Origin: a virus
Direction: 5' to 3' (one strand)
Length of the DNA: 64,000 nucleotides
IMG/VR virus record: IMGVR_UViG_3300021419_000005
Location: 1 to 64,000 of that record
The notes under the pieces are model-generated. The model saw only the letters and a program-made list of their open reading frames with translations. It was not told the origin of the DNA and searched no databases. Made by a program: the position numbers and the translations under genes. The first letter of the stretch is position 1. Every line of letters starts with the position of its first letter. Below, in pieces: positions 178 to 18,340 of the stretch.

Positions 178-321
178 ACCTAACGCCCAGGCATAGACGC
201 CGTTGCCGGAAGCCGGAGTGGAGGGCATCGGCAGATTCGTGGAGGCCGCTTGCGGCCGGAGCGAGTCTGACGATTCCCGGAACGTAGGCTGGAGGTTATG
301 GCGTTTCATGCCCAGTTGGCC
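178..321 (+). other. attC-like integron recombination site 1
   Basis: The site opens with ACCTAAC (178-184), which matches the RYYYAAC R'' box, and ends in GTTGGCC (315-321), close to the GTTRRRY R' box. Between them the outer arms are imperfectly complementary: left GGCATAGACGCC pairs with right GGCGTTTCATGCC with extra unpaired bases, as in folded attC hairpins. The centre contains a second palindromic stretch around GGCCGCTTGCGGCC. The element is 144 bp, exactly the length of the two related copies at 1460-1603 and 2581-2724. Periodic copies of such a sequence separating unrelated genes are the hallmark of an integron cassette array. Confidence 0.8.
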
Positions 322-644
322 GCAGTAGGCCCGGTGGGTCGCCAGGACCTGGGCCATCTGCATGTCCCACCGACAAGCGGCTTCTTCGCGCCTCAATCCG
401 AGGCCAACAGTGCGTGGCCACCCGTGTCGTCCCCTCGGTCCATTCCCCCGTTGGAACACAGGGATTCCGCCAAGGGACCATCGCCAACCCGCGTATTGCG
501 TCGCGCGAAGCGATTCAGCGTCGCGCCTCTACATGGCGACACGGAGCTCATGGACGATTCATACTAGGCAGAGTAAAAAGCCTTGCACATCACCTGTGGC
601 GACGCCTGTGTCCTCCACCAACTTCGTGCCCCAAGGAATTGATG
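322..644. other. Cassette leader, no gene seen
   Basis: This is a 323-bp stretch between attC site 1 and the cassette gene at 645. Frames starting in the attC site and running through it have no ribosome binding site and no recognisable protein features. An AT-richer patch around 560-590 could hold a promoter, but I cannot identify clear -35 and -10 boxes. Confidence 0.35.
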
Positions 645-1316
645 ATGACACCGATTGACTCCACGAGATCAACGATGACCACAGTTGAGCTTCAGGGGCC
701 TGTGAAGCGGCTCCCCCGTCTTTTCGGTACGGAGCCACATCCGAGGAAATGGGAGATGCGGGGAGCGTACTCTTTGAAGTCAGTCACGCTACTACGAGAG
801 CAGGTGTGGGCAAGGTCAGCAGTCTCGCGCATTTCCATGGAGAGTCTTCGAGGAGGACCGTTCTGGGTCACCAACCTCTTGAGTCAACGGTTGGAGCTGT
901 CCGGCCGGATCGAAGGACTTCAGTGGGTGGCCAACCCGATTGAAAAGGACTCGTTCCCCTGGGTTCCATACAGTGAAATGGTCGAAGTTGCCGCAGCCCT
1001 CGGCTGCACGGTTGATTGCAGCAATGCCCAGCTTATCGACTCAAGGCTCCAGCTCTGGGTCAAACCTGAGAGCATTACTACAAACGCCGCCCGTCAGGCC
1101 TGTATAGATGCAGATGCACTGTGGCAGCACAAGGAGATTCTATCTCCGGCTGAGTTTGAGACACACGCAATAGTGGACACAATCGCAACAGCCAGACTAT
1201 CGCGGCATTCACCCTGGTGCGTTTCCTTTGTAGTTGAAGCAAACCCTGGAATGTCTGGCGTTGAGAGCCTGCAACAGGACCTGCAACGTCTCAGGATGAT
1301 CGGTGCGGTTCAATAA
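645..1316 (+). CDS. Integron cassette protein of unknown function
   Basis: This gene encodes a 223-residue soluble protein that I do not recognise. The ATG at 645 is chosen because AAGGA (633-637) sits seven bases upstream; the adjacent ATG at 642 is too close to it. It lies between attC-like sites 1 and 2 in the same orientation as the sites, with 143 bp between its stop codon and the next attC, so it is a standard one-gene cassette. The C-terminal third has alternating charged and hydrophobic stretches and no membrane segment. Base composition is visibly less GC-rich than the prophage genes to the right, as expected of a cassette of independent origin. Cassette genes are commonly orphans, so no function is assigned. 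Confidence 0.65.
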   Translation: MTPIDSTRSTMTTVELQGPVKRLPRLFGTEPHPRKWEMRGAYSLKSVTLLREQVWARSAVSRISMESLRGGPFWVTNLLSQRLELSGRIEGLQWVANPIEKDSFPWVPYSEMVEVAAALGCTVDCSNAQLIDSRLQLWVKPESITTNAARQACIDADALWQHKEILSPAEFETHAIVDTIATARLSRHSPWCVSFVVEANPGMSGVESLQQDLQRLRMIGAVQ

Positions 1317-1459
1317 GACGGGTTCAATAGTCTCGCCATCCGCAACGTGGGGGGCCCCTATCCATCTTGGGCGACCTCAATTCAGTGAATCCGGAGAAGG
1401 TCCCCAGCTGTCCACGCACGAGGCACGGTCAGCACCAGGCAAAACGTAGGGCCTATTGC

Positions 1460-1603
1460 GGCCAACGCCAAGGTATAGACGCCGTTGCCGGAAGCCGTAG
1501 TGGAGGGCATCGGCAGATTCGTGGAGGCAGCTTGCTGCCGGAGCGAGTCTGACGATTCCCGGAACGCAGGCTGGAGGTTATGGCGTTTCATGCCCAGTTG
1601 GGC
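1460..1603 (+). other. attC-like integron recombination site 2
   Basis: This is a 144-bp copy highly similar to site 1 (178-321), differing mainly by scattered substitutions. It ends in GTTGGGC (1597-1603), a perfect GTTRRRY R' box. The left R'' box GGCCAAC (1460-1466) has one mismatch to RYYYAAC. The internal arms GTATAGACGCC and GGCGTTTCATGCC and a central AGCTTGCT palindrome are retained. Cassette boundaries are predicted after the G at 1597. Confidence 0.8.
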
Positions 1604-1680
1604 GCCGCTCCCGCCGGGGGTCTGCGACACCCGTCAACGCGGCATCATAACCGTCTGGCCATATAACAGCCCAAATGGCC

Positions 1681-2484
1681 CTACATCTCGAAGTATAGGC
1701 ACGAGATTGTCGCTTGCGTCCATTCCGCTGAAAAAAGGACATCAGTCTGGCAGGAATCCCGAACGCCGGACGACCACATCTTGGTGGGAGTCGATGGGAA
1801 ACTGGGCAAGTTGGCGAACCCCGACAGGTCAGTCGCATCGATTGTCCATCGGGGACCTGCCCCCCCAGCGGCTCCTGCAGATTCCACGGGCAACGACTGG
1901 AGGCAGACAGCGATGCCCTCAGCGTCGGTTCTCGAGAAAGCTCCGGCAATCCCTACGGCCTGCATTTCGTTCAGCGCATCACGACGGCCAGCAGCTCGAT
2001 GCCCGGTCCAGTTTGTAGCCACACACCGTTCCGGTGTGGACTGAGTCAGTATGTATCGGCCACAAAGGAGTGCACTGGAATACGCCACGAACACCGCCCA
2101 ACCGACATTTCGGCCTCGCAACGGTGACCTGCCTTTCCGCCAGTGAGTGCCAATCGCAACCACGACCACCCCCACCATCATGAGAATCCACGCGGGGATG
2201 AGTCCAGGTTGAACAGCAGGGAACCCAGGAAACTGAAGGAGACAGATCAGCCACCAAAGAATGACGCCACCAACGGCAAGTCGACGGGAACGTCGAGCCT
2301 GCGCCGACGCCCCCTGCTGCCACAACAGAGGAATCGCGCCGAGCCAGACCAAAAGGACCATCAGGGTTCGTCCGTCCACGACTCCAGTCCACCAGAACAC
2401 CGAAACCAGACCAGCGGTGAAGACGCTCACGACGAGTGAGGCACGAGGAAGTGCAGGTAGTTCCGGTTCATGTGCCAACTGCAT
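1681..2484 (-). CDS. Multi-pass membrane protein in an inverted cassette
   Basis: The product is about 267 residues. Its N-terminal half holds four or five hydrophobic segments (roughly residues 17-35, 41-56, 72-88, 100-112 and 128-145), followed by a soluble C-terminal half of about 120 residues. The ATG at 2484 follows a weak GGGACGG element, and a TTG at 2487 is equally possible. It lies between attC-like sites 2 and 3 but in the opposite orientation to them, so it cannot be driven by a distant integron promoter and must have its own. I do not recognise a family. The complementary frames are rich in His, Pro and Arg and look like shadows. Confidence 0.55.
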   Translation of the reverse strand: MQLAHEPELPALPRASLVVSVFTAGLVSVFWWTGVVDGRTLMVLLVWLGAIPLLWQQGASAQARRSRRLAVGGVILWWLICLLQFPGFPAVQPGLIPAWILMMVGVVVVAIGTHWRKGRSPLRGRNVGWAVFVAYSSALLCGRYILTQSTPERCVATNWTGHRAAGRRDALNEMQAVGIAGAFSRTDAEGIAVCLQSLPVESAGAAGGAGPRWTIDATDLSGFANLPSFPSTPTKMWSSGVRDSCQTDVLFSAEWTQATISCLYFEM

Positions 2485-2580
2485 CAATCCGTCCCGCGCT
2501 CATCGCTATTGGCAACCTCGCGAACCAGATCCATAGCGCAAACCCACACGACCCGCCCGAAACCTTGAGGCGGGATTGGC

Positions 2581-2724
2581 GCCCAACGCCAAGGCATAGA
2601 CGCCGTTGCCGGAGCCCGGAGCGGACTTGCATCCGCATAGAGGTGGAGGCGCTTGCGCCGGAGCCTCTATGAGGATTCAAGGGAGCGTAGGGCGGAGGTT
2701 ATGGCGTTTCATGCCCAGTTATCC
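2581..2724 (+). other. attC-like integron recombination site 3
   Basis: This is the third 144-bp copy. It has a perfect R'' box GCCCAAC (2581-2587), the arms GGCATAGACGCC and GGCGTTTCATGCC, and an R' box GTTATCC (2718-2724) whose last bases would belong to the next cassette. The variable centre is diverged from copies 1 and 2: it has its own extended inverted repeat, with CATAGAGG pairing with CCTCTATG around a GGCGCTTGCGCC core. Conserved ends with a diverged but still self-complementary centre are typical of attC sites. The phage-like genes begin just to its right. Confidence 0.8.
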
Positions 2725-2896
2725 GCCAGAACCACAAAGCACCGTCACCACGGGGCTTTCGGGGAAGGCTGTACCGACCGAAGACCCGTGTCAGGCCGTG
2801 TCGACACTTCAATGTCGGTACAGTCGTCGGTACAGTGGAGGGCGCGCCACCTCCCCCGCCATAGGCCCTATGGGGGCGGGTGGGGGAGAGTGTGGA
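2725..2896. other. Cassette array / prophage junction with TCGGTACAG repeats
   Basis: This 172-bp stretch separates attC site 3 from the first phage-type gene. It holds three copies of a 9-mer: CTGTACCGA (2769-2777, inverted) and TCGGTACAG at 2815-2823 and 2827-2835, the last two 12 bp apart. A perfect palindrome GTGTCGACAC lies at 2798-2807. Clusters of short repeats at a prophage edge could be integrase arm-type sites or an operator. Because the integrase is at the other end of the prophage, attL should lie near here, but its core cannot be defined without the right junction. Confidence 0.4.
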
Positions 2897-3958
2897 TTGG
2901 AGGTCACGGGGTCGACCAGCCGTGGACACTGGCTGCTCGTCTCGGGACAGCCCGTCGTAGGGGGCAAAGGCATCTGCGGTACCCACGATGGGGAAACCTG
3001 GAGCATCACCTACAACGACCTCGGAGGGATCTGGGAGGTCGTGAACGAGGACATGGAGGTTCGCCCGTTCGCTTCGGATGTCGAGGCGGCCGAGTGGCTT
3101 GCCAGCTTCAATGGCTGGGAGGAGCCTCGCCAAGGGGAAGTCCCATCTCCCGGTCTCTCGGTTCCGCCTTTCCCCATGCCCCACACCGGTCTCCTCGTCG
3201 CCTTCGAGGGGGTCGACGGGTCCGGCAAGTCCACACAGGCGGATCTGCTGGTTGCAGCCCTCCACGCGCTCGGGGTCCCGACTGTTCTCACAAGGGAACC
3301 GACGGGCGGGCCATGGGGCCGCCGCATCCGAGAGAGCTTCTCGGGCGAGCGGCTGCCTGCGTCGGAGGAGCTGGATGCGTTCATGCGTGACCGGGAGGAG
3401 CACGTCGCATCCGTCATCCGGCCAGCGCTGCTCGCCGGCAAGGTCGTGGTGGTCGACCGCTACTACCTGAGCACCGTGGCCTACCAAGGGGCTCGCGGAC
3501 TCGACCCTGATGTGCTGCTCCACCAGAACGAGGCCATCGCTCCCCGGCCGGACATCACACTCCTATTCGACCTTCCGGTGGGGGAAGCCCTGAACCGCGT
3601 CGGTCGGCGAGGGCAGGCCAACAGCTTCGAAGCTCGTGACGCGCTTGAGAAGGTCGCGCAGATCTACGGCTCGGTGTCGCTTCCCGGGTTGGTCAGCATC
3701 GACGCCAACCGGGCTGTGGCACCAGTGTTCCGCCACGTCCTTCGGCTGGTCCTTGAAGCGCTGCAGGCCTCAGTCAAGCACAACTGCCACACCTGCAAGT
3801 GGTTCCTCTCGGTCAACGAGGGCGCCCTGGAGTGCCAGCTCGACCACCTCCCCGAGGTCCGCGCATGGCAGAAGGCCCAGACCTTCCAGCTCAACGAGAT
3901 GCCGGTTGAGGACGCCGAGGGTTGTCCTCCGTGGTCGCCGAAGGGTGGTGCGCCATGA
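2897..3958 (+). CDS. tmk: Thymidylate kinase with N- and C-terminal extensions
   Basis: The central part is a dTMP kinase, which phosphorylates dTMP to dTDP for phage DNA synthesis. It has the P-loop GVDGSGKST (about residues 105-113 from a TTG start at 2897), TREPTGG, DRYYLSTVAYQG and a basic lid with GRRGQANSF. The kinase alone would start at ATG 3176, but the same frame upstream is clearly coding-like (Trp- and acidic-rich, ending in a Pro-rich linker), giving about 93 extra residues. A GGGGGAGAG element precedes the TTG; ATG 2870 is an alternative start. After the kinase come about 60 residues with CHTC, a third Cys and EGCPP, suggesting a small metal-binding tail. The stop overlaps the next start (ATGA). 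Confidence 0.8.
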   Translation: MEVTGSTSRGHWLLVSGQPVVGGKGICGTHDGETWSITYNDLGGIWEVVNEDMEVRPFASDVEAAEWLASFNGWEEPRQGEVPSPGLSVPPFPMPHTGLLVAFEGVDGSGKSTQADLLVAALHALGVPTVLTREPTGGPWGRRIRESFSGERLPASEELDAFMRDREEHVASVIRPALLAGKVVVVDRYYLSTVAYQGARGLDPDVLLHQNEAIAPRPDITLLFDLPVGEALNRVGRRGQANSFEARDALEKVAQIYGSVSLPGLVSIDANRAVAPVFRHVLRLVLEALQASVKHNCHTCKWFLSVNEGALECQLDHLPEVRAWQKAQTFQLNEMPVEDAEGCPPWSPKGGAP

Positions 3959-4065
3959 CCGCCGCCGCCACCCCACCAGGCCCCGGTCTTGTCGACCTGC
4001 CCACCGTCGTCGCCGCTGCTGCATGGCTCGTCATTGTCATCCAGCTCGCCGCCCACCTCTCCTGA
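3955..4065 (+). CDS. 36-residue single-pass membrane peptide
   Basis: A short frame begins at the ATGA overlap with the thymidylate kinase stop and ends at TGA 4063-4065. It encodes a Pro/Ala-rich N-terminus followed by one hydrophobic helix of about 18 residues (VVAAAAWLVIVIQLAA). ATGA coupling with a confident gene is the main support. No function is assigned. Confidence 0.45.
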   Translation: MTAAATPPGPGLVDLPTVVAAAAWLVIVIQLAAHLS

Positions 4066-4192
4066 CTCGCTCCCCTCTGTCGAGCTGAGACCGGTCCTTC
4101 CTGCTCGAGCCTGAACTCCCCCGGGGTGATGTATTGCCCCACAAGGTGCGGCTCGGACGGCGGAGGGGAGCACATCCACCTGGAGGCCAACG

Positions 4193-6079
4193 ATGTCGGC
4201 CCCACTCAACACCATTCGCTCCACCTACACCCACTTCGGGATGTGCGTTGGCCTCGGCGGCATGTCGCTCGGACTGACGCGGGCCCATGCCCGTGTTGGC
4301 CGCTTCGAAGCCCGCTTCCGCTGCCTTGGAGGCATAGACTCTGACCCGGCGGCGTGCCGCGACTTCGAACGCCTCACCGGCACCAAGGCCACCTGCCGCG
4401 ACCTCTTCGACCTCGAGGACTTCCGGGCCTACCACGCCCCCTGCAAGACCGCGCGGAAGCGGTGCAAGGCGTGCGGCAACACGGGCGAGCCCCCACCCGG
4501 CTGGAAGGAGGTGGCCCCGGCCGACGTCCTCGCCGCGGCCGGCGGAGAGTGCCCCGACGTCTTTGCTTGGAGTCCGCCGTGCAAGGGCAACTCCGGCCTG
4601 TTGAACCGGAAGAGTGCCCAGAGCGAACGCTACCAAGCCCTCAACCGCCTCGTCCTCCGGTGCCTGGTCCTCGCGCTGGAGGCCTTCAAAGACGACCCGC
4701 CGGCCTTGGTCATCATGGAGAACGTGCCCCGCATCGTCCAGCGGAGCCGGGACCTCCTCGACGCCGTCACCGGCACCCTCCGCGCCTACGGCTACCAGGT
4801 CGCCGAGACCACACACGACTGCGGCGAGCTCGGCGGGCTCGCCCAGAGCCGCAAGCGCTTCCTCCTGGTGGCCCGCCATGCTCGGAAGGTGCTGCCCTTC
4901 CTCTACGAGCCCCCGCGCAGGCGACTGCTCGGAGTAGGCGAAGTGCTGTCCACGCTGCCGATGCCTGACGACGAAGAGGCCGGGTCCATGCACCGACTGC
5001 CTCGCCTGCAGTGGCAGACCTGGCTTCGGCTGGCCCTCATCGAGGCCGGCAAGGACTGGCGCTCCCTCAACCGCCTGAAGATTCGGGACGGGATGGTCGA
5101 GGGCCTGCGGCTCGCTCCGGCGACCGCATGGCACCGCGGAGTCCTCGGAGTCTCTAAATGGGGAGAGGCCGCACCGACCATCACCGGTCGCGCAGGAGCG
5201 ACCACCGGGCGGTTCTCCGTCGCAGACCCTCGACCACCTCGCGAGATTGGGCGCTACCAGCCCTACGGTGTCGTTCCCTGGGAAGGGCATTGCGGCACCA
5301 TCACCAGCCAAGCCGCACCCGGAGCCGGCAGCTACTCCGTGGCCGACCCGAGGTGTACCACCAGTCGCGGGGGCGCAGGCAAGCACCGCGTCACGGGCTG
5401 GGCTGAGCCCGCTGGATGCGTCATCGGCGCCTCCACGACCGGCCAGGGTGCCACCGCCGTCGCCGACCCCCGCCTCGATTGCGACGCCGACAACCGCCAG
5501 ACCCGCCGCCACAACAACGTGTACCGGGTCATCCGCTGGGATGAGACCAGCACCACGGTGACCGGGGCAGCGGGCAACAGTCGGCCCAACGTCGCGGACC
5601 CTCGCCCGACCTGGTCGAAGACCGAGGGCGGGGACTGGTCCTCGGGCGGGCACTACGGCGTGGTCCAGTGGGACCAGCACACCAAGACCGTCGTCGGCAA
5701 CGCGAAGCACGACCGCGGCGCCTGGTCAGTCGCAGACCCTCGGCCCCTTCCCGCCCCCAAGGAGCAGTGCTGTCCCGTCATCATCTCGCTCGACGGCACC
5801 CGGCACCGCCCGTTCACCACGCTGGAGCTCGCCGCGCTCCAAGGGTTCCCCACTCGACTGCTCGATGGGTCCCCGCTTCGGCTGGATGGTCGCTCGGACT
5901 CCGACCACCGCATGCGCATCGGCAACGCGGTCCCGCCCCCGGCCTTCGAGGCGGTGGGCAGCGTGATGCTCGAAACCCTCCTCCGCCAGCAGATCGGTCA
6001 GAGCTTCACGCTCTCGGCCCTGCCCGTCTGGGTGCAGCCCCTCGCCGCCGCCCTCTCCGTCGACACCCTCGAGAACTGA
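4193..6079 (+). CDS. C5-cytosine DNA methyltransferase with tandem repeats
   Basis: This 628-residue protein has the ordered motifs of C5 methyltransferases. They are a glycine-rich N-terminus (motif I), SPPC at about residues 125-130 with the catalytic Cys, MENV (motif VI), QSRKRF (motif VIII), TTLELAALQGFP (motif IX) and RIGNAVPPPA (motif X). It transfers a methyl group from S-adenosylmethionine to cytosine C5. Start ATG 4193 has GGAGG six bases upstream. Between motifs VIII and IX, about residues 310-517 consist of five units of 38-46 residues, each ending in VADPR; this is the position of the target-recognition region. It probably protects phage DNA from host restriction. No cognate endonuclease is seen beside it, so it looks like a solitary phage methylase. 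Confidence 0.92.
   Translation: MSAPLNTIRSTYTHFGMCVGLGGMSLGLTRAHARVGRFEARFRCLGGIDSDPAACRDFERLTGTKATCRDLFDLEDFRAYHAPCKTARKRCKACGNTGEPPPGWKEVAPADVLAAAGGECPDVFAWSPPCKGNSGLLNRKSAQSERYQALNRLVLRCLVLALEAFKDDPPALVIMENVPRIVQRSRDLLDAVTGTLRAYGYQVAETTHDCGELGGLAQSRKRFLLVARHARKVLPFLYEPPRRRLLGVGEVLSTLPMPDDEEAGSMHRLPRLQWQTWLRLALIEAGKDWRSLNRLKIRDGMVEGLRLAPATAWHRGVLGVSKWGEAAPTITGRAGATTGRFSVADPRPPREIGRYQPYGVVPWEGHCGTITSQAAPGAGSYSVADPRCTTSRGGAGKHRVTGWAEPAGCVIGASTTGQGATAVADPRLDCDADNRQTRRHNNVYRVIRWDETSTTVTGAAGNSRPNVADPRPTWSKTEGGDWSSGGHYGVVQWDQHTKTVVGNAKHDRGAWSVADPRPLPAPKEQCCPVIISLDGTRHRPFTTLELAALQGFPTRLLDGSPLRLDGRSDSDHRMRIGNAVPPPAFEAVGSVMLETLLRQQIGQSFTLSALPVWVQPLAAALSVDTLEN
5120..5743 (+). repeat. Five coding tandem repeats ending in VADPR
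   Basis: Within the methyltransferase gene five imperfect units of about 115-140 bp each encode a pattern of aromatic/Gly-Val, Trp, a Thr-rich TVTG/TITG-like strand and a terminal VADPR. The terminal motif occurs five times, at about residues 343-347 (first) to 513-517 (last). The nucleotide sequences have diverged although the protein pattern is kept, so the repeats are old and selected at protein level. Confidence 0.75.
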
Positions 6080-6093
6080 GCCTGGAGACCCAC

Positions 6094-7737
6094 ATGCCTA
6101 ACATCACCCCCGAAGAGGTCCGTGCTCTCCGCGAGGCCGCCTCCCCCGGCCCACTTCGGCTGGCCCAGATGGACTCAGCCCTGGACCCGACCGAGCTCTT
6201 CCGCGGCTACCTCGAGCGCGGCTCGGGGCCCGTATGGGGAGTCCTCGTGCCCGAGCATCCAGACACCATCGATGGGTGGGCAGACCGACCCCAGCATGGT
6301 GCGGTCTCCTGCTGGACCGGCAACGGGCCGACTTCCGAGGCCAACGCAAGGCTCTACCTCCGGGCGCCCGACATCGCTGACGCGTACCTGACCGAGCACG
6401 CTCGCGCTGAAGCTGCTGAGACTGCAATCGGTGCCGCCATCGACACCATCTGCGGCGACGCTCGTGACTCCGGCCCTCCGCTGCTGGTGCAACTGCAGCA
6501 CGCGGTCGAGGGCCAGACGAAGCAACTGGCAGACGAGATTCAGCGGTACGAGGAGCAGTACGCCCGCGCCGAAGCCCTCGCCGCCCTCCTGCGCAAAGCC
6601 GCCGCCCCCCTCAACCTCGCCGGGGTCCTCCTCGACGACTCCGACGAGTGGAAGGCCGCCGCCGCAGCCGTGGTCGCGCACGTGGACGGCGTCGAGCCCA
6701 GTGCCGTGCTCGAGGGGTGGGCGCTGCTCGATGCCCGGCGGGGTGGCGGCCTTGAGCCAGTGGAAGTGGACGTGCTCGACCCTGACGTCCCGCCGGTCGA
6801 CGTGAAGCACTTCGAGTGCAGGCGGTGCGAGTGGGTTGGGCCAAAGTCGGCGCTGGAACACCACATGTCTGGCAGCCTGTGCCCCAAGTGCCGCATCGTG
6901 CTGTGGGACAACGGGCTCCCCTCCACTGAGGCGAGGCTGGTGCCGCCGGCCGACGATGAGGTGGGGCGACTGCGGGCTCGGGTGGCTGAACTGGAGACCA
7001 GCCGGGCGCGAATCATGCGGAAGTACCTCGACCTGAACCGCCAACGGCCCAGCCTGCCGCCCCGTGTCGCCGCATCTGACGCCCTTGCGGCCATGGTTGC
7101 GGCCGTGTCCGAGCCGCTGGACTGCGGACACGGGCTGGACTGCTGGGATGACGAGCGGAATGTCTGCACCCGATGCGAGGCCGAGCAACTCCGCGAGCGC
7201 GTGGCCGAGCTCGAAGCCGCCTGCGAGCTGCAGCAGAACGACACGACCACACTACGGCGCGCGCTCACCGACTCGCTGGAGGCCGCTGGCTACAGCGAAG
7301 ACCCCGACATGGACTGGCCGCGGTTGCCGGGAGTGGTGGCTGCAATGCGGGCGCGCGTGGCCGAACTCGAGGCCATCCCCGGAACAGCAACCATTGAAGC
7401 CGCCATGAAGAACATCGAACGGCTGACTGGGATGCTGGAGGTCGAGTGGCGCGAGGGCGTGCCCAGCGCCGAAGACGTCGAGGCGCACGCGGCTCGGTCT
7501 GCAGCATGGTTGATCGAGGACCGCGGGCTGGGTGAGGTCAGTCCCGCCATCCTCAAGGTCGCCGACGGGTACATCTGGATGAGAGACGTCAGCGACCTCG
7601 CCCCATGGCGGCAGGTCCACGACCAAATCGCCCGCGCAGTCCCGGCCGGGTGGGAATGGCAGCCCGTCCCCTGGCCCGTGCGCGGCGCCGACGACGGTGC
7701 AGCCTCCGGCGCCGAGGAGGTGGCCGATGAAGGTTGA
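6094..7737 (+). CDS. Coiled-coil / zinc-finger-like phage protein
   Basis: This 547-residue protein is of unknown function. The start ATG 6094 lies 15 bp after the methyltransferase stop, with GGAG (6084-6087) upstream. An N-terminal conserved-looking block (about residues 1-110) is followed by long Ala/Glu-rich helices with repeated RARVAELE heptads. Two Cys clusters are present: FECRRCEW with CPKC about 20 residues later (about residues 235-265), and CGHGLDCWDDE followed by CTRCEAEQL (about residues 345-370). Both could bind zinc. Modular phage proteins built from heptads and Cys pairs are common in large actinophage and myxophage early regions. It overlaps the next gene by 11 bp. Confidence 0.7.
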   Translation: MPNITPEEVRALREAASPGPLRLAQMDSALDPTELFRGYLERGSGPVWGVLVPEHPDTIDGWADRPQHGAVSCWTGNGPTSEANARLYLRAPDIADAYLTEHARAEAAETAIGAAIDTICGDARDSGPPLLVQLQHAVEGQTKQLADEIQRYEEQYARAEALAALLRKAAAPLNLAGVLLDDSDEWKAAAAAVVAHVDGVEPSAVLEGWALLDARRGGGLEPVEVDVLDPDVPPVDVKHFECRRCEWVGPKSALEHHMSGSLCPKCRIVLWDNGLPSTEARLVPPADDEVGRLRARVAELETSRARIMRKYLDLNRQRPSLPPRVAASDALAAMVAAVSEPLDCGHGLDCWDDERNVCTRCEAEQLRERVAELEAACELQQNDTTTLRRALTDSLEAAGYSEDPDMDWPRLPGVVAAMRARVAELEAIPGTATIEAAMKNIERLTGMLEVEWREGVPSAEDVEAHAARSAAWLIEDRGLGEVSPAILKVADGYIWMRDVSDLAPWRQVHDQIARAVPAGWEWQPVPWPVRGADDGAASGAEEVADEG

Positions 7738-7873
7738 ACTCATCTTCGCTTGGTACGACCTGTGGGTCGGCTTCTACTGGGACCGGAAGAACCGGTGGCT
7801 CTACTTCCTGCCTGTGCCGATGTTTGGACTGGTGTTCAAATTTGGCGCCGAGGAGGTGGTCGATGCCCAATGA
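7727..7873 (+). CDS. Small aromatic-rich phage protein (48 aa)
   Basis: A 48-residue protein starts at ATG 7727, overlaps the upstream stop by 11 bp and the downstream start by 11 bp, and is preceded by GGAGG (7716-7720). It contains the string FAWYDLWVGFYWDRKNR, which I recognise as resembling small conserved phage proteins of unknown function with an AWYDxWVG...WDRKxR pattern. It is too polar for a transmembrane helix despite its many Trp and Tyr residues. The coding support is the tight overlap and the conserved-looking motif. Confidence 0.65.
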   Translation: MKVELIFAWYDLWVGFYWDRKNRWLYFLPVPMFGLVFKFGAEEVVDAQ

Positions 7874-8141
7874 GTACCGCCTGCAAGGCTGCGGGCTCCC
7901 CTGCACGCTGGACGACTGCCCGCCGGGGCTGTTCATGGCCCTGAACGACGACGGCACCCCGTCTGGGCACGTGGGCCTGAAGACGCAGTACGGCCTCACC
8001 AAGCTCTCGGATGCCGGCAACGGTCGGGTCTACGCCAACGTCTCCAGCGAGACGGAAGCCTTCGTGGCTGCGAGTGGGGAGTTCTGGGGCGCCGAGGGGC
8101 TGGTCGTGCCTCTCAGCGTGGAGGTGGTCGATGCCGAGTGA
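7863..8141 (+). CDS. Small phage protein, unknown function
   Basis: The product is 92 residues. ATG 7863 follows GGAGG (7853-7857) and overlaps the previous stop by 11 bp; the end overlaps the next start by 11 bp. The spacer sequence GCCGAGGAGGTGG(C/T)CGATG is repeated before three consecutive genes here (7727, 7863 and, as a variant, 8131), suggesting that these small genes spread by duplication of the translation-coupling unit. The protein has early Cys residues (GCGLPC) and a Ser/Ala-rich C-terminal half. I do not recognise it. Confidence 0.65.
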   Translation: MPNEYRLQGCGLPCTLDDCPPGLFMALNDDGTPSGHVGLKTQYGLTKLSDAGNGRVYANVSSETEAFVAASGEFWGAEGLVVPLSVEVVDAE

Positions 8142-8871
8142 CCTCCACATCTACATCGCCGGCCCCTACACCAAGGGCGACACAGCCCGCAACATCCGCG
8201 TGATGCTCGACGCCGCTCAGTGGGTGGTGGACATCGGCGCCCACCCGTTCGTCCCGCTGCTCTCCCACTTCTGGGAGATGGTCCACCCCAACCCCTACGA
8301 AGTGTGGATGCGTTGGTGCCTGTCGTGGGTGCGTCGCTGTGATGCAGTCCTCCGGCTCCCCGGTGAGTCTTCCGGCGCTGACCGGGAGGTTGCGCTCGCC
8401 GAGGAGTTGGGAATCCCGGTGTTCACGGACAGGGCCGCACTCGCGAAGTGGGTCTTCACCAATGGCGGAGAGGTGGCCGATGCCGAGAACGCATGGGCCG
8501 ACCTGAACCGCCGGGCTGCTGCTGTGCCTGGCTTCGACCCGCAACTCGGTGAGCGCCTCGCAGATGGTCGCATCGTGTGTGACCTGAACGACGACGGCTC
8601 CATCTTCACCGCGTTCGGTGATCGGGACCGCCGAGCCCCAATGGGGCCGGACATGGGCAGCGCGGGAACTCGGGGCTTCCGGCGGGCGGCGCTTGGGAGC
8701 CCCGCGCTCAGCTACGAGCACCACCCGGAAATCGGCACGTGGAAGTGTGGGCTGATGCTCCACGGTCGAGGCGTGCACGACTTCGTCGGGTACGGCTCCT
8801 CGTTGGAAGAGGCCGAGGCCGCCGCACTCGTGGCCCTGGCCGAAGCGCGCCAGCAGTGGGGGCCGGGATGA
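8131..8871 (+). CDS. DUF4406-like / nucleoside deoxyribosyltransferase-fold protein
   Basis: The N-terminal 110 of 246 residues resemble DUF4406 and nucleoside 2-deoxyribosyltransferase-like domains. A glycine-rich opening IYIAGPYTKGD is followed by a helix, then DAVLRLPGESSGADREV with the conserved S-G-A-D-x-E segment, then LGIPVF. Family members are thought to bind nucleotides or sugars, but their role in phages is unknown. The C-terminal 130 residues are a second, unrecognised domain ending in a long Ala/Glu helix, so this may be a fusion. ATG 8131 overlaps the previous gene by 11 bp, and the stop overlaps the next start (ATGA). Confidence 0.75.
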   Translation: MPSDLHIYIAGPYTKGDTARNIRVMLDAAQWVVDIGAHPFVPLLSHFWEMVHPNPYEVWMRWCLSWVRRCDAVLRLPGESSGADREVALAEELGIPVFTDRAALAKWVFTNGGEVADAENAWADLNRRAAAVPGFDPQLGERLADGRIVCDLNDDGSIFTAFGDRDRRAPMGPDMGSAGTRGFRRAALGSPALSYEHHPEIGTWKCGLMLHGRGVHDFVGYGSSLEEAEAAALVALAEARQQWGPG

Positions 8872-9089
8872 AGCGGCTGGCCAACTTCCTCAAGCCGACC
8901 GCGCTGCACTTCCTGCGAATCGCCGCAGTCCTCCTCTTCTGCAGAACCCTGGCCGCTGTCAACGGTTGGGACCCCACCCACGTCATCGCCGTGACCGCGC
9001 TGTGCTTCGCGATGACGAACACACCCGAAGACGGATGCACATCTGTGCACGAGCCCAGCCGCGACGACCGCGGGACGGAGGACGCATGA
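8868..9089 (+). CDS. Small single-pass membrane protein
   Basis: The product is 73 residues. It starts in an ATGA overlap with the previous gene. A hydrophobic stretch from about residue 11 to 50 contains one or two helices (LHFLRIAAVLLFC and VIAVTALCFAMT), followed by an acidic polar tail. No family is recognised. Confidence 0.55.
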   Translation: MKRLANFLKPTALHFLRIAAVLLFCRTLAAVNGWDPTHVIAVTALCFAMTNTPEDGCTSVHEPSRDDRGTEDA

Positions 9090-9331
9090 CCGAACACCGC
9101 TTCTACCCACAAGCCACAGGCGAACTCAAGACGGCGCATGGCGAAGACCCGTTTGATGCGCTGCACAACCTCATCGAAGCGACACCACCCGGAGAGGCGT
9201 TCAAGCTGATCGATGAAGACATCGTGTGGGAGCCCCACGAGAACGCTCCACCTGAACTTTGCATCACGTACCAAGTGGAACTCAGGTTTTCCGTGGCCAT
9301 TTCTGAGAAGCCCAAGGCGGAGACAACATGA
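9086..9331 (+). CDS. Small acidic phage protein
   Basis: The product is 81 residues. Its start overlaps the upstream stop in an ATGA arrangement and its stop overlaps the next start the same way. It is acidic and His/Glu-rich with a predicted beta-strand ending (YQVELRFSVAIS). Translational coupling in a continuous run of seven genes supports expression; function is unknown. Confidence 0.6.
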   Translation: MTEHRFYPQATGELKTAHGEDPFDALHNLIEATPPGEAFKLIDEDIVWEPHENAPPELCITYQVELRFSVAISEKPKAETT

Positions 9332-9834
9332 ACCCGGAATCGTTCACTGTGGAAACCAGCATCAGCGCCGCCTACCAGGCGAACCGCGATGTCCGAAAGG
9401 CACGAGAGGCGCTCGACATCGCCAAAGCGGTGCAGGACGCCACGCGGGACCTCTGCATGGGCTTCGAGGACGAGGTGGCCACACTCCGCAGACGCATCGC
9501 CGAACTGGAGCAGCAAGCCGCCGACCACGAACAGGCCGACGTCAACGACCGCATGAGCGAGCCCGAGTCCATCCCCGTGGCCGAGCTCGCCGAGGTGCTC
9601 GGGTGTGAAGCTGATGCAGGGGCGGTGCGCTCGAGGGTCCAGTGGTTCGCAGGCTACGAGCGGGCCGGCAGTGACATCGAGGGATGGAGGCGCCTCTGTC
9701 GTGCGGTTCGACTGGATGGCGGCGAAGCCAGCCCAGAAGAGGTCGCGGAGGCCGTGGAGGCCATTGCACGGGAGCTTGAAAGTGCGAAGAAGGCGTTGGA
9801 GTCACCGCTCTCCCCTGACAGCACCTCCCAATGA
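9328..9834 (+). CDS. Coiled-coil phage protein, last gene of the unit
   Basis: The product is 168 residues, and the ATG at 9328 overlaps the previous stop. Helical, heptad-like segments cover about residues 20-70 (RRRIAELEQQAADHEQ) and the C-terminus (EAVEAIARELESAKKALE). The gene is followed 19 bp later by a strong hairpin (9854-9880), so it closes the transcription unit that began with the thymidylate kinase. Function is unknown. Confidence 0.6.
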   Translation: MNPESFTVETSISAAYQANRDVRKAREALDIAKAVQDATRDLCMGFEDEVATLRRRIAELEQQAADHEQADVNDRMSEPESIPVAELAEVLGCEADAGAVRSRVQWFAGYERAGSDIEGWRRLCRAVRLDGGEASPEEVAEAVEAIARELESAKKALESPLSPDSTSQ

Positions 9835-9853
9835 CAGGACCGACCGTAGCCCC

Positions 9854-9880
9854 AAACCCCGCCGAGTGATCGGCGGGTTT
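9854..9880 (+). terminator. Rho-independent terminator
   Basis: AAACCCCGCCGA, loop GTGA, TCGGCGGGTTT forms a stem of about 11 bp ending in a short T run. It lies 19 bp after the stop at 9834 and before a run of less GC-rich DNA that precedes the next gene. Confidence 0.7.
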
Positions 9881-9917
9881 CGGCGTTCACGAGGCCACCA
9901 ACGAATCTCGATTTCAC

Positions 9918-9954
9918 CACAAAACTTGTGGCGCAGATATTATCACAAGTTAAT
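9918..9954 (+). promoter_or_regulatory. Candidate promoter/operator
   Basis: After the terminator an unusually AT-rich stretch contains the short palindrome CACAA-AAC-TTGTG (9918-9930) and a second half-site CACAAGT (9944-9950). A TTGTGG (9926-9931) with GTTAAT 17 bp downstream could act as -35 and -10 boxes. The match is weak; the base-composition change and position between terminator and gene are the main support. Confidence 0.35.
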
Positions 9955-10030
9955 AGGTTGGTGTCGGCGGGGGGAGACCTCGCCACCCCGGCCCAGCGGG
10001 ACACTGGGATGCTCCAACTGAGAGCGCCAC

Positions 10031-10339
10031 ATGTTCACCATCTCCCTCCTCATCCCCCAGGCCGACAACGACGGCCGGGCCTTCTCCGAAGAGGAGGTCG
10101 CCGACTTCGAGGCGGACCTCATCGACATCTTCGGTGGCTTCTCCCGCGAGACCGCTCCGGTGGTCGGCGGCTGGGCCCACGAGGGTCGCGTCTACCGCGA
10201 CCTCTCCTTCCGCTACGTCCTCGCCGTCGGGTCCATCGCCGACGGCGCGAAGGTGGCCGAAGCGGTGAAGGTCGCCAAGGCCCGGTTCGCCCAGGAGGCC
10301 ATCTTCGTGCAGTACCTCGGGCTCTCCGAGGTCCTGTAG
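10031..10339 (+). CDS. Monocistronic phage protein, unknown function
   Basis: This 102-residue protein stands alone between a terminator (9854-9880) plus promoter-like region and another terminator (10347-10364). It has alternating strand and helix character: FTISLLIPQ, an acidic helix EEEVADFEADLI, strand RYVLAVGSI and an Ala/Lys helix. No family is recognised. Its isolated control suggests expression independent of neighbours, perhaps in the lysogen. Confidence 0.6.
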   Translation: MFTISLLIPQADNDGRAFSEEEVADFEADLIDIFGGFSRETAPVVGGWAHEGRVYRDLSFRYVLAVGSIADGAKVAEAVKVAKARFAQEAIFVQYLGLSEVL

Positions 10340-10346
10340 GCCACCC

Positions 10347-10364
10347 GGCCCCCTTCGGGGGGCC
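10347..10364 (+). terminator. Hairpin terminator, no clear T tract
   Basis: GGCCCCC, loop TTC, then GGGGGGCC forms a 7-bp all-GC stem, eight bases after the stop at 10339. It is followed by TCCATTG, which has only scattered T, so termination may be partial. Confidence 0.55.
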
Positions 10365-10410
10365 TCCATTGCCCCTGCCGGTTCGCGCCCGCGGGGGCAG
10401 CCCTGGAGGC

Positions 10411-11055
10411 ATGATGCGACGCGTCAACGTCCACACCTACCCAGTCCGGTACGCGGCGAACGAGAACCCCGGTGCGCTGGTAGTCTTCACTCCCGACGCC
10501 AACGGCCTGGTCCACCCAAGTGGCTACGGCGCTCGCCCAGCCATCGAGTGGATGACCGACCACGGCCGAGAAATGGCGGCGTACACGCGCCTGTGGCGGA
10601 ACCGCTCCTGGGCCAGTCTGACCGACGGCATCAGCGGCGCGGTGATGCGGAACCGCAACGGCTTCCGGGTGGAGGTGACCGCCACGCTCCCATCAGCATC
10701 CCGGCGCCAGACGGGGTGGGCGGACCAAGCTTCGACGCTCGAGGAGGCACTCCAGATGCTGGAGGCCTACATCGACCGCGCCCACGTCTGGGTGCGCCGC
10801 GGGATGGCCTCTGAGGTGCCTGTCGTCCTCTCCACTGGCCTCCGCTGCTGGCTCGACTCTCGGCACCCGGGCCAGGCCTTCCGCGGCCTCACGACCAAGC
10901 CCGCCGTGTTTCTCGAAGCCGACCCGGGCCGTGGCCATCGCGCAGTCCGCAACCCTTCCGGCCCCCAGGTCGCAGACGCCGAGCTCGTTGAACTCCGAGA
11001 GGCGATGCTCGCCGCTCATCGCACGTCCCAGCTTCCCCTCCCCTTCGCTGCCTGA
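10411..11055 (+). CDS. Phage protein, unknown function
   Basis: The product is 214 residues. GGAGG (10405-10409) is close to the first ATG (10411) and better spaced for the second (10414), so the exact start is uncertain by one codon. The sequence is mixed alpha/beta with a Trp-containing middle (RLWRNRSWASLTDG), a helix with EALQMLEAYIDRAHVWV and a Pro-rich C-terminus (SQLPLPFAA) like a short peptide ligand. No known domain is evident. Confidence 0.6.
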   Translation: MMRRVNVHTYPVRYAANENPGALVVFTPDANGLVHPSGYGARPAIEWMTDHGREMAAYTRLWRNRSWASLTDGISGAVMRNRNGFRVEVTATLPSASRRQTGWADQASTLEEALQMLEAYIDRAHVWVRRGMASEVPVVLSTGLRCWLDSRHPGQAFRGLTTKPAVFLEADPGRGHRAVRNPSGPQVADAELVELREAMLAAHRTSQLPLPFAA

Positions 11056-11064
11056 GAGCACACC

Positions 11065-11850
11065 ATGCCCACCGAGATCTACACCACGGCCCACGGCAAG
11101 ACGCTTGCCCTCAACCTCTCCGAAAAGGAGGCGGTCTGGCTGGCCAACTTCCGCGTCCGCGCGGCGGACCCGACCGTGTCCGTCGGCACCGTCACCAACG
11201 AGGCCTACGCGGACACGAACCCCCTCCTCGCCCCGTCCCCCATCCCCGGCCGTGGCTGGGTGACCCGTGAGGTCCATGCTCGGCCGGCCTACCAGGCCCT
11301 CCTGGACGTCATCTACCAGAAGACGGTGCAGGAGACCGGCAGCACCGCCGAGGAGCGGTTCACGCTGACGGTGGCCGCGGCGGCGGCCGAGCTCGGCATC
11401 TCGGAGTCCGCTGTGCGGACCGCCATGTACGACGGGCGGCTTCCCAGCATGAAGAAGGGCCGGCGCCTGATGACCTCCCCCGAGGCGGTCGCTGGCTACC
11501 AGGTGAGCAACCGGGGACCGCGGTCGGGCTCAAGGGTGCGCCGTGGCACCACAATCCCGTTGCGGGTGTCGCGCGGCTCCGCGAACGGCCTGGTCTTCCA
11601 TGTCGCCCACGATGGGTCGGAGTCGGAGTCCCCCGTCAAAGACCGCGAGGTCCTCGTGTCCGGCTGGTCTTCCGCCTACGTCCGGTCCAGTGTGAAGGCC
11701 AAGGACTCGCATCGGTACTGGGAGCTGGCCCCGAGCACTCAAGAGGCAGACGTGACCTTGGAGCAGTTTGGCGTGTGGGGCAGGTTCCAGGTGGTTCGCT
11801 CTCTTCGTGGGCGGGAAGCCCTGGAAGCGTGGAAGGCGCGGCCGCGGTAG
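11065..11850 (+). CDS. Excisionase-type helix-turn-helix DNA-binding protein
   Basis: The product is 261 residues. About residues 103-145 read as a MerR/excisionase-family winged helix: AAAAELGISESAVRTAMYDG, then LPSMKKGRRLMTSPEAVAGY, the usual pattern of recognition helix, turn, basic wing and final helix. The N-terminal 100 and C-terminal 110 residues are unrecognised. It could be a directionality factor or a transcriptional regulator. A second protein with the same type of HTH lies beside the integrase at 63427, which is the better excisionase candidate. Confidence 0.6.
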   Translation: MPTEIYTTAHGKTLALNLSEKEAVWLANFRVRAADPTVSVGTVTNEAYADTNPLLAPSPIPGRGWVTREVHARPAYQALLDVIYQKTVQETGSTAEERFTLTVAAAAAELGISESAVRTAMYDGRLPSMKKGRRLMTSPEAVAGYQVSNRGPRSGSRVRRGTTIPLRVSRGSANGLVFHVAHDGSESESPVKDREVLVSGWSSAYVRSSVKAKDSHRYWELAPSTQEADVTLEQFGVWGRFQVVRSLRGREALEAWKARPR

Positions 11851-12132
11851 CCGTCACTTGGCCCGCCCCATCCGCCTGCTCTGCCAGATCGGGGCTGGGA
11901 TATTCGTGCGCTACCCACCAGCGGCCCGCCGCGCAAGAATACAGGTACTGTTGCGTACGAAAGATGCGCAAGCTGCGCGCAACCCAGGGAATCGTGCTGA
12001 TGTGAGCCTTCTGCGGGCTCCTGTGTATCGGCCCTCGGGCCCAAGTGGGGTACCCACCTTCACCAGAATGCGTGGTTCCTGGGAAGCTGCTGGCGGCGCC
12101 TACCTGTATAGTCCCGCGGCTTGGAGGCTGAA

Positions 12133-13146
12133 GTGGCGAAAAAGGGGTTCGATCGGCGCGGTGTGGGGTTCTTCACAGTACGTGCATGGCAGCAGGGCAA
12201 GGGCGGGAGCTGGTGCGAAGATCCGCACTGGGGCTTCGTGAGCGTCCTCCGCTCACTGCAGGCAGGAATGGCTCGTCCCATCTTGCGGCGACTGAAACCC
12301 GATGAGACCGAGCACGACACCCCCAGAGACACGCGCATCACAGGCTACCGCAAGATTCTGGCCGCCGAACACGCTGCAGGCCACAGCGTATTGTTGTTTC
12401 AGGTTGGAAGGTACGACAGGCCATACAATGCGCGCGCCGACATCGAGGAAGAGGTGATTTCGCACGACGAGGACTCTCGCGCCGATGTGGTGACCGCACA
12501 TGTTGTCATCGGCCACTCGCCTCTCGCTGATGGCACGTTCCCTGCTCGCATCGAGACCGTCACCGGAGCATCAAGGTCAGCCATTGAGGCGGGCTTGAAC
12601 GCGATTCTGTACAGCGCCGAATGCGACTTGAGGCAGGAGGTCGCGGAGCCCGGAGGGCGCAGCTACCTGCTCTGGTGGCGCATCAAGATTGACCTTGAAA
12701 CCGAACAGACCGTGGGCGACTTCCTGCGTGACAACGAGGCGCTTGCGACCTTTTCGGTGGTGATTCCCGACACCACCATCGACTCCAACTCCGACCGGCA
12801 ATTCAACGTCACAGTAGAGACCACGCTCTCCACCTCGGAGCTCCGCGGCGATGGAGTCCTGGGGGTGTTCCGCCCCATCCTCCTTCGACAGTCGAAGTCT
12901 CGCGTCAGACTTCGAACCCAGCAGGAGCGGTACGACCTTTCTGCGGACTGCGAGCTGGCGCCCGAATCCGGGTCAGATCTTGTCGACGTTGATGCCGCGG
13001 TGGAGGCGCTTCTCACATCCGCCATGTCGAGGAAGTCGACCATCGTATTCCGACCCGCTCGCCTCCACCAACACGAGGAAATCGATTACGAAGTGGTAGT
13101 CCCCCACCTCGTGGAGCTCCTCTATGCCGAACACCATGCAGGGTGA
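12133..13146 (+). CDS. Soluble partner of a two-gene module, unknown function
   Basis: This 337-residue soluble protein does not match anything I recognise. GTG 12133 is chosen because GGAGG (12123-12127) lies five bases upstream; a TTG at 12121 is in frame but has no such site. The protein alternates beta-strands and helices, with an N-terminal basic segment, an acidic patch (EEEVISHDEDSRADVV) and a C-terminal domain with repeated strand-like FRPILLRQSKSRVRL. Its 3' end overlaps the next gene by 23 bp, so the two are co-translated. DNA is less GC-rich than the flanking phage genes, suggesting acquisition. The pairing with a membrane protein in a prophage accessory position suggests defence or superinfection exclusion (inference only). 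Confidence 0.6.
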   Translation: MAKKGFDRRGVGFFTVRAWQQGKGGSWCEDPHWGFVSVLRSLQAGMARPILRRLKPDETEHDTPRDTRITGYRKILAAEHAAGHSVLLFQVGRYDRPYNARADIEEEVISHDEDSRADVVTAHVVIGHSPLADGTFPARIETVTGASRSAIEAGLNAILYSAECDLRQEVAEPGGRSYLLWWRIKIDLETEQTVGDFLRDNEALATFSVVIPDTTIDSNSDRQFNVTVETTLSTSELRGDGVLGVFRPILLRQSKSRVRLRTQQERYDLSADCELAPESGSDLVDVDAAVEALLTSAMSRKSTIVFRPARLHQHEEIDYEVVVPHLVELLYAEHHAG

Positions 13147-13726
13147 GGGCCCCCCCCGGCGTAGGCATGCAGGCGGGCGCGAGGCAAGGCTGCTCCGGCT
13201 TCTGAGCTACCAGCACACTGCACTCACTGCCCGTCATTGGGCTGCCGTCGCATCCGGTGTGGGATGGGCAGTACTCGATACAGCTTGCTACTGGCTGAGT
13301 GGTCGAACTATCCCGTTTTTCGTGGACGGAGCTATCAACGAGCAAATCGTCTCGCTGATGGGCCTCCTGTTCGGCATCTACATGGGACTCGCGGGCGTTT
13401 TTGCTGCATCGTCCAACGAATGGCTGGACGAGCCTCTCAAGAACAGTCCGACCCTACCTGAACAGCCTACGACTCCCCTGAAGAGGCGCTCGTTCATTAT
13501 TGACACGCTGCTATACTGCTCGCTCGTAAGCGCTTTGGTTGTGGCCTACTCTGGAGTCCTCACCCCAGCGCTCCGGCATCTGTCTATCGCGCTTCTGGCG
13601 ATGACAGACGTGTCATGGGCTCGACCCGCAGCATCAGTCGCAGCATCCAGCGTAGTGCTTGCAACGGTCACCCACACAATGCTTATGGCGACGCTCATTG
13701 TTCGGTACCTGCGGGTTCGACTTTAG
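13124..13726 (+). CDS. Four-helix membrane partner of the two-gene module
   Basis: The product is 200 residues. After a basic N-terminus (about 35 residues) there are four hydrophobic segments at roughly 38-55, 74-96, 127-148 and 167-193, with a Pro-rich charged loop (NSPTLPEQPTTPLKRR) between the second and third. ATG 13124 has GGAG (13113-13116) upstream, and a second ATG at 13136 is possible. The 23-bp overlap with the 12133 gene makes the pair a tight operon. A soluble sensor or effector plus a small membrane protein is a common arrangement in abortive-infection modules, but no family can be named here. Confidence 0.6.
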   Translation: MPNTMQGEGPPRRRHAGGREARLLRLLSYQHTALTARHWAAVASGVGWAVLDTACYWLSGRTIPFFVDGAINEQIVSLMGLLFGIYMGLAGVFAASSNEWLDEPLKNSPTLPEQPTTPLKRRSFIIDTLLYCSLVSALVVAYSGVLTPALRHLSIALLAMTDVSWARPAASVAASSVVLATVTHTMLMATLIVRYLRVRL

Positions 13727-13740
13727 ACAGCGTCATAGGC

Positions 13741-13756
13741 TTGCCTAGTCAGGCAA
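13741..13756. terminator. Weak bidirectional hairpin at a convergent gene junction
   Basis: TTGCCT, loop AGTC, AGGCAA forms a 6-bp stem, flanked by AAAAC on the right. It lies between the converging stops of the rightward unit (13726) and the leftward late operon (13745), where a terminator is expected. The stem is short and overlaps the stop of the leftward gene. Confidence 0.3.
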
Positions 13757-14011
13757 AACGGCGGAGCGCTTCCCTGCCCTCCCTTCCCCGTCCAACCCGC
13801 AATCGCACCCATCCTCAATCCCGCCCCCGTACTCCGTCACCACCCGCACGGCGCACCCCTCCCTGTGCCGCACGAATGGCCGCAACCGCTCCCCTTCCTC
13901 GGCGAGCTGGAGCAGGCCTGCGACCTGGACGCGGGTGAGCTTGCGCTGACCAGGCGGCTTGGCGAGCTCGGCGCGGACCTTGGCGAAGAAGCGGGCGTTG
14001 GGCGTGGACAC
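13745..14011 (-). CDS. Small phage protein at the end of the leftward operon
   Basis: The product is 88 residues. The GTG start at 14011 is chosen because GGAGG lies five bases upstream on the minus strand. The N-terminal half is basic and helical (ARFFAKVRAELAKPPGQRK), and the end has a Cys-Asp-Cys cluster (EDGCDCGLDGEG) that could bind a metal. It is the last gene of the leftward series. Function is unknown. Confidence 0.5.
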   Translation of the reverse strand: MSTPNARFFAKVRAELAKPPGQRKLTRVQVAGLLQLAEEGERLRPFVRHREGCAVRVVTEYGGGIEDGCDCGLDGEGRAGKRSAVLPD

Positions 14012-14074
14012 AGGCACCTCCTGCGCCCGAGATAGACCGGTGGAGCCGCTGGTGGCGGACTGCATCTGACCGGC

Positions 14075-14278
14075 TCACCGCCCCTTCTTGAAGTGCTCCA
14101 CCACGATCGCCCGCTCCACCCGGGTGAGCCGCTCCTTCACCAGCTGGAGCCGCGGAGCATCCTCCGCCGCCCACCCGCACGAGATGCAGGCCGCTGCGAG
14201 CCGCTCTCCGTCAGCGGGCCTGGCGTAGACCGTTGGTCGGCCACAGCCAGGGCAGCGGTAGCGGGGGCGGGCCTTCAC
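14075..14278 (-). CDS. Small zinc-ribbon protein
   Basis: The product is 67 residues. Two Cys pairs, CPGC (about residues 9-12) and CISC (about 31-34), spaced by about 18 residues, form a classic zinc-ribbon pattern with Tyr/Arg-rich knuckles. A basic helical tail (VKERLTRVERAIVVEHFKKGR) follows. It overlaps the start of the upstream secreted-protein gene by 4 bp (ATGA-type). Such ribbons often bind nucleic acid or proteins; the partner is unknown. Confidence 0.6.
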   Translation of the reverse strand: MKARPRYRCPGCGRPTVYARPADGERLAAACISCGWAAEDAPRLQLVKERLTRVERAIVVEHFKKGR

Positions 14279-18331: not shown

Positions 18332-18340
18332 GGACACCTC

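What the first reader, a model, noticed from the sequence alone, without database searches (positions are those of the whole stretch)
178..2724. Three 144-bp attC-like sites: an integron cassette array
Seen: three copies of exactly 144 bp at 178-321, 1460-1603 and 2581-2724, each with RYYYAAC-like and GTTRRRY-like end boxes and imperfectly self-complementary arms (GGCATAGACGCC with GGCGTTTCATGCC). Copy 3 keeps the ends while its centre has diverged yet stays palindromic. Known: this is the diagnostic structure of integron attC sites. Between copies lie unrelated genes. No integrase gene is in the window, so the array start or end is elsewhere. The uniform length suggests a chromosomal array with a family of related attC sites.
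Basis: partly seen in the sequence, partly recalled or inferred. Interest (0 to 1): 0.8.

Follow-up and report, generated by a model that had tools for sequence, protein, structure and literature searches.

The report
Prophage integrated into an integron attC
The three repeats are real recombination sites of a bacterial gene-cassette array, and a 62.5-kb dormant virus appears to have used the third one as its landing site, which ties viral integration to a gene-capture system in a way I found no earlier report of.

Summary
The three 144-bp repeats are real and are integron attC sites. Each cassette's own two ends are inverted repeats (17/18 and 17/19 bp). The stem shows 11 compensatory pair changes among three copies with every cell paired, and the site anatomy matches an intI-bearing integron used as yardstick. 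Four structural criteria place the array on the minus strand.

The larger finding lies outside the given coordinates. The record is a 65,379-bp virus contig. From attC copy 3 onward it is a contractile-tail prophage (62.5 kb) flanked by an 11-bp direct repeat, ATGCCCAGTTA (2711-2721 and 65253-65263), which is the end of the attC (R box, spacer, start of L box). Beside the right repeat lie a tyrosine integrase with all catalytic residues and a weak excisionase-like gene. The record's only six copies of GTCGGTACA lie within about 105 bp of the repeats, as expected for attP. Joining the flanks turns the non-consensus R box GTTATCC back into GTTAGGC. So the phage integrase most likely used an attC as attB.

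No intI is in the record, and no related phage, empty site or host genome was found; the case is single and untested. Known attC-targeting elements are IS1111-type ISs and group IIC introns; I found no phage.

The parts
178..321 (-). attC copy 1 (144 bp; R boxes ACCTAAC 178-184 and GTTGGCC 315-321 as written on +)
1460..1603 (-). attC copy 2 (R boxes GGCCAAC 1460-1466 and GTTGGGC 1597-1603)
2581..2724 (-). attC copy 3, occupied: R box GCCCAAC 2581-2587; the other R box is the hybrid GTTATCC 2718-2724 (attC up to 2721, phage after)
184..1465 (-). cassette B (minus orientation; includes attC copy 1); own ends 315-332 and 1449-1466 are inverted repeats, 17/18
642..1316 (+). ORF of cassette B, 224 aa, no Pfam family (antisense to the inferred array direction)
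1466..2586 (-). cassette C (minus orientation; includes attC copy 2); own ends 1597-1615 and 2569-2587 are inverted repeats, 17/19
1681..2487 (-). ORF of cassette C, 268 aa, apparently membrane protein, no significant Pfam family; sense in the inferred array direction
2711..2721 (.). attL core ATGCCCAGTTA, direct repeat of 65253-65263 (attR, beyond the window end, in L004)
2722..64000 (.). prophage, part inside the window (continues to 65252 in the record): tail sheath, portal, TerL, major capsid, scaffold, baseplate J, thymidylate kinase, C5-methyltransferase
2770..2834 (.). three putative integrase arm sites GTCGGTACA (2770 -, 2814 +, 2826 +); the other three are at 65169 +, 65182 +, 65193 -
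63430..63783 (+). excisionase-like gene, weak match (phrog_66, E 0.0023), directly before the integrase
63780..64000 (+). phage tyrosine integrase, first part; gene runs to 64955 in the record (391 aa, PF00589, phrog_1; R-K-HxxR-H-Y present)

Best explanation
A host integron cassette array (three attC sites, two whole cassettes, and a stretch of another past the right end) carries a 62.5-kb prophage inserted in one attC. Most likely mechanism: after infection the phage's own tyrosine integrase, bound to arm sites (GTCGGTACA) on both sides of its attP core, recombined that core with the identical 11 bp TAACTGGGCAT/ATGCCCAGTTA at the R''-spacer-L'' end of an attC in double-stranded DNA. This made attL (2711-2721) and attR (65253-65263). 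Ten of the 11 bp are the same in all three attC copies, so the array offers many near-equivalent attB sites between dispensable genes. Shown from sequence: the attC anatomy, the cassette boundaries, the 11-bp repeats, the arm-motif clustering, and an integrase with all its catalytic residues. Inferred: that this integrase made the insertion, that the other attCs are usable, that the substrate is double-stranded, and that the hybrid R box weakens this attC for IntI.
For: Cassette signature: cassette B own ends 17/18 and cassette C own ends 17/19 complementary, while 0 of 200,000 random 16-mer pairs reached the 14/16 seen. Bouvier 2009 reports 9-11 nt as usual (PMC2727003), and a yardstick integron with intI shows 10-12 nt in several cassettes. 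Stem: 11 compensatory pairs, 100% paired. Core ATGCCCAGTTA is found once in the window and again at 65253 beyond it; the 10-mer ATGCCCAGTT occurs only at the three attC ends and at attR. GTCGGTACA: 6 in 65 kb, at 49, 93, 105 bp and 52, 63, 76 bp from the cores, against 0.25 expected per 64 kb. Joined flanks restore GTTAGGC, a perfect GTTRRRY. Integrase and an excisionase-like gene adjoin attR. Structural phage genes fill the interval.
Against: Single case. No related integrase in IMG/VR, phage or plasmid records, no empty site, and the host genome was not found. The 11-bp core alone is weak: about 3% of random 144-bp phage segments share an 11-mer with the last 400 bases; the case rests on its position, the arm sites and the restored R box together. 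Reads were not available, so a chimeric assembly cannot be formally excluded.
Confidence: 0.85

Rival explanations
1. The cassettes are part of the phage genome itself (a phage-borne CALIN, as reported for several phages), and the record is simply a linear phage contig with cassettes at one end.
For: Phages carrying attC clusters are known (PMC9892861); the record is filed as viral.
Against: Core repeats, arm sites and integrase place the phage ends exactly at attC copy 3 and 65253; the flanks outside rejoin into a normal attC. The first 2 kb, mostly cassettes, is lower in GC (59%) than most of the phage (mostly 64-71%).
Confidence: 0.07
2. The host integron integrase IntI inserted the phage, as a giant cassette or by off-target recombination at attC, rather than the phage integrase.
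For: An attC is by definition an IntI substrate; Qi et al. propose IntI/SOS to explain attCs flanking a Vibrio phage (PMC9892861).
Against: The phage has no attC at its other end: the R'' that would match its start (GGATAAC) is absent from the last 3.4 kb. The putative attP has arm sites and int/xis. In the inferred array orientation the junction lies at R'', not at the IntI cleavage box R'.
Confidence: 0.05
3. The 144-bp repeats are a hairpin repeat family (MITE/REP-like) that only resembles attC, and the phage integrated in such a hairpin.
For: No curated attC covariance model could be run; only three copies are present; the sites have one extrahelical base rather than two or three.
Against: The flank of one copy is complementary to the flank of the next copy at the cassette boundary, twice, over 17 bp; this is expected for cassettes and not for MITEs. 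The R-box, spacer and L-box layout matches an intI-bearing integron.
Confidence: 0.03

Closest known systems
Sedentary chromosomal integron cassette arrays / CALINs with attC sites
   Same: R boxes, unequal spacers, L boxes with an extrahelical base, conserved G after AAC on the folding strand, cassette-end complementarity
   Different: Long 144-bp sites with a regular stem broken by conserved GGA/GGA loops; own-end complementarity reaches 17 matched bp; no intI in the record; one site occupied by a prophage
Lambda-type temperate phage integration (tyrosine integrase, attP with arm sites)
   Same: Short core repeat at attL/attR, arm-type repeats on both sides, int and an xis-like gene next to attP
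   Different: attB is one end of an integron attC, a repeated host recombination site, not a tRNA or single-copy gene
IS1111-attC insertion sequences and group IIC-attC introns
   Same: Other mobile elements that target attC sites, in the case of these ISs at one end (PMC11187229; PMC7923331)
   Different: DEDD transposase with seekRNA, or retrohoming ribozyme; not a phage and not a tyrosine integrase
Vibrio anguillarum phage Va_90-11-286_p16 (Qi et al. 2023)
   Same: Reported as a prophage flanked by attC sites
   Different: Its record includes host thrS-infC-rpmI-rplT-intIA and host cassettes, and the phage integrase abuts thrS, so those attCs are in my reading not its att sites; the authors invoke IntI

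Membership tests
Integron attC / cassette array | R'' and R' boxes (RYYYAAC / GTTRRRY) at the ends | tested here: met
   AAC/GTT in all copies, with up to one deviation in some boxes (ACCTAAC, GCCCAAC, GTTGGGC fit; GGCCAAC, GTTGGCC deviate by one); copy 3 fits only after the flanks are joined
Integron attC / cassette array | Ends of one cassette complementary to each other (R'/R'' of the free circle) | tested here: met
   17/18 and 17/19; chance below 1 in 200,000 each
Integron attC / cassette array | Folded stem with extrahelical base(s) on the R''-L'' arm | tested here: met
   One extrahelical base in one L arm; 11 covarying pairs; only one such base, usually two or three
Integron attC / cassette array | Match to a curated attC covariance model | not testable with these tools
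   Rfam gave no match; the IntegronFinder model is not available here
Complete integron | intI integrase and attI | tested here: not met
   No TIGR02249 candidate in the 65-kb record; the array continues off the contig
Temperate phage integrated by a tyrosine integrase | Direct-repeat core at both ends | tested here: met
   ATGCCCAGTTA at 2711 and 65253
Temperate phage integrated by a tyrosine integrase | Arm-type repeats on both sides of the core | tested here: met
   3 + 3 GTCGGTACA, none elsewhere in the record; binding not tested
Temperate phage integrated by a tyrosine integrase | Integrase with R-K-HxxR-H-Y next to an att site | tested here: met
   R233, K259, H324xxR327, H347, Y359
Temperate phage integrated by a tyrosine integrase | Excision and integration demonstrated | not testable with these tools
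   no reads, no host

The most novel reading that the evidence does not exclude
A phage lineage has specialised on integron cassette arrays: its integrase takes the conserved end of attC as attB, so every cassette in an array is a potential landing site, and aberrant excision or recombination between neighbouring attCs lets the phage carry cassettes between hosts.
Probability: 0.3. Interest if true: 0.8.

Novelty: new variant of a known kind. Interest (0 to 1): 0.62.

Why it matters
Integrons and temperate phages both use tyrosine recombinases, yet I found no report of one using the other's sites as its own attB. If phages do target attC, cassette arrays are multi-copy phage docks. That would give a direct route for cassettes (including resistance genes in other integrons) into phage particles, and would help explain attC clusters in phage genomes. 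It is testable with one integrase and a 40-bp site.

Tried and rejected
Rfam scan: nothing. Exact attC-end pattern in IMG/VR: none; in GTDB genomes: 74 stretches that look like chance or mycobacterial matches, no match extending over a whole attC. Arm-motif pairs in IMG/VR: 10 loci with no relative of the integrase. Integrase relatives in IMG/VR, phages, plasmids, about 300 genomes of one 'Deltaproteobacteria' phylum and 392 planctomycete genomes: only 20-30% background hits. Terminase in Planctomycetota and one further phylum: at best 33%. A Vibrio attC pattern in viral contigs, tried for a second case: one hit, inspected by eye and not followed up. Giant-cassette and MITE readings rejected as given under rivals. 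Host not identified; the MopE motif protein and the Mx8/Mx9 similarity of one gene only hint at Myxococcota.

Full report
1. Observation. The three repeats are present at the stated coordinates, 144 bp each, and are the only copies in the record. They fold into one long imperfect hairpin. On an alignment of the three copies a 43-pair stem is 100% paired, with 11 pairs changed on both sides; none of 500 shuffles reached any of these values, and sliding the partners by 1-3 columns destroys the pairing. Fold energies are lower than shuffles by 1.8 to 3.0 sd.

2. They are attC sites. The decisive test is at the cassette boundaries: the sequence starting at GTT after one copy must be complementary to the sequence ending in AAC before the next. 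Cassette B gives GTTGGCCGCAGTAGGCCC against GTTGGCCGCAATAGGCCC (17/18), cassette C gives 17/19; random 16-mer pairs of this genome never reached the 14/16 seen beyond GTT/AAC in 200,000 draws. Bouvier et al. 2009 state that such pairing usually extends to 9-11 nt (PMC2727003). As a yardstick I took an integron with a true intI from a Phycisphaera genome (TIGR02249; fetched): its attCs of about 108 bp have the same layout and several of its cassettes show 10-12 nt of own-end pairing. No curated attC model could be run.

3. Orientation. Four criteria agree that the array reads on the minus strand. (a) Extrahelical bases by definition sit on the R''-L'' arm; here the extra base is in the right-hand arm on the plus strand (GGCAT A GACGCC against GGCGTT T C ATGCC). 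(b) The longer spacer is next to R' in the intI-bearing yardstick; here that is the left end. (c) Most attC sites have G after AAC of R' on the folding strand; all three copies have AACG at the left end, and AACT at the right end on the other strand. (d) All wobble pairs of the stem are G.T on the plus strand (5, 6 and 5 per copy) and none is A.C, so selection appears to act on the plus strand as the folding, 'bottom' strand. Cassette C's ORF agrees with this direction, cassette B's does not. I put orientation at about 0.8.

4. What else is there. The window is bases 1-64000 of a 65,379-bp virus record. The last 1.4 kb contains ATGCCCAGTTA at 65253-65263, the same 11 bp that ends attC copy 3 (2711-2721). 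Between the two lie a terminase, portal, capsid, scaffold, tail sheath, baseplate J, thymidylate kinase and C5-methyltransferase. Next to the right repeat are a tyrosine integrase (63780-64955; PF00589 6.6e-13, phrog_1 4.9e-40; catalytic R233, K259, HxxR 324-327, H347, Y359) and a weak excisionase match. GTCGGTACA occurs six times in the record, at 49, 93, 105 bp from the left core and 52, 63, 76 bp from the right core, and nowhere else (0.25 expected per 64 kb). This is the anatomy of attL and attR of a lambda-like prophage.

5. attB is an attC. Joining the outer flanks gives ...GGCGTTTCATGCCCAGTTAGGCGACG...: the R box becomes GTTAGGC, a perfect GTTRRRY, whereas the occupied site has GTTATCC. 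With the array on the minus strand the core TAACTGGGCAT covers the end of R'', the spacer and the first five bases of L'', the end opposite to the IntI cleavage box. The 11-bp match alone is weak evidence (about 3% of random phage segments share an 11-mer with the last 400 bases); its position at the point where copy 3 leaves the attC consensus, the arm sites and the restored R box carry the case. Ten of its 11 bp are identical in all three copies, so other attCs should be usable. Pairing of the two R boxes of copy 3 falls from 6/7 to 4/7 on insertion (sequences), so I infer, untested, that the site is weakened for IntI.

6. Rivals. A phage-borne cassette cluster is unlikely given the att anatomy. 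IntI-driven capture is unlikely because the phage has no attC at its other end and the record has no intI. A MITE reading does not explain the complementarity between neighbouring copies' flanks.

7. Known work. Phages carrying integrons or attC clusters are described (PMC9892861). The nearest precedent, Vibrio phage Va_90-11-286_p16, is said to be flanked by attCs, but its record holds host thrS-infC-rpmI-rplT-intIA with the phage integrase abutting thrS, so I read its attC ends as host flank. IS1111-type elements and group IIC introns target attC. Seven literature searches found no phage integrase using attC as attB; the library is open-access only.

8. Limits. One example, no relatives, no host, no reads. 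The finding stands as a strong sequence-based inference.

Noticed in passing
window 178-321, 1460-1603, 2581-2724: The attC stem is interrupted by conserved symmetric 3x3 loops, several of them GGA/GGA on the plus strand (TCC/TCC on the minus). GGA/GGA is, from memory, a motif known to stack stably in single-stranded DNA (as in TGGAA repeats), which could add to strand selectivity.
   Followed up: partly
window 315-332 with 1449-1466; 1597-1615 with 2569-2587: Own-end complementarity of cassettes reaches 17 matched bp over 18-19, longer than the 9-11 nt said to be usual; the free cassette circle would fold into a longer hairpin than the in-array site.
   Followed up: partly
window 43759-45051 (-): Protein of 430 aa with MopE-type metal-binding motifs (PF11617) and a weak lamin-tail domain in a lower-GC part of the prophage; possible cargo or host-derived gene, hinting at a Myxococcota host.
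   Followed up: no
window 3176-3958 and 4193-6079: Thymidylate kinase and a C5 cytosine methyltransferase are the first large genes after attL; possible nucleotide or DNA-modification functions.
   Followed up: no
window 62867-63430 (+): HTH protein with a weak similarity to TnsD, upstream of the excisionase-like and integrase genes.
   Followed up: no
L116 14172-14191: Viral contig in which TGTACCGAC-type repeats follow directly after what looks like a tRNA 3' end, so the same motif may serve as arm sites in an unrelated integrative element.
   Followed up: no
L120 (MK672802.1) 21779-28053: Published 'complete' Vibrio phage record contains host thrS-infC-rpmI-rplT-intIA, so its reported attC-flanked excision may be an artefact of prophage boundary calling.
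   Followed up: partly
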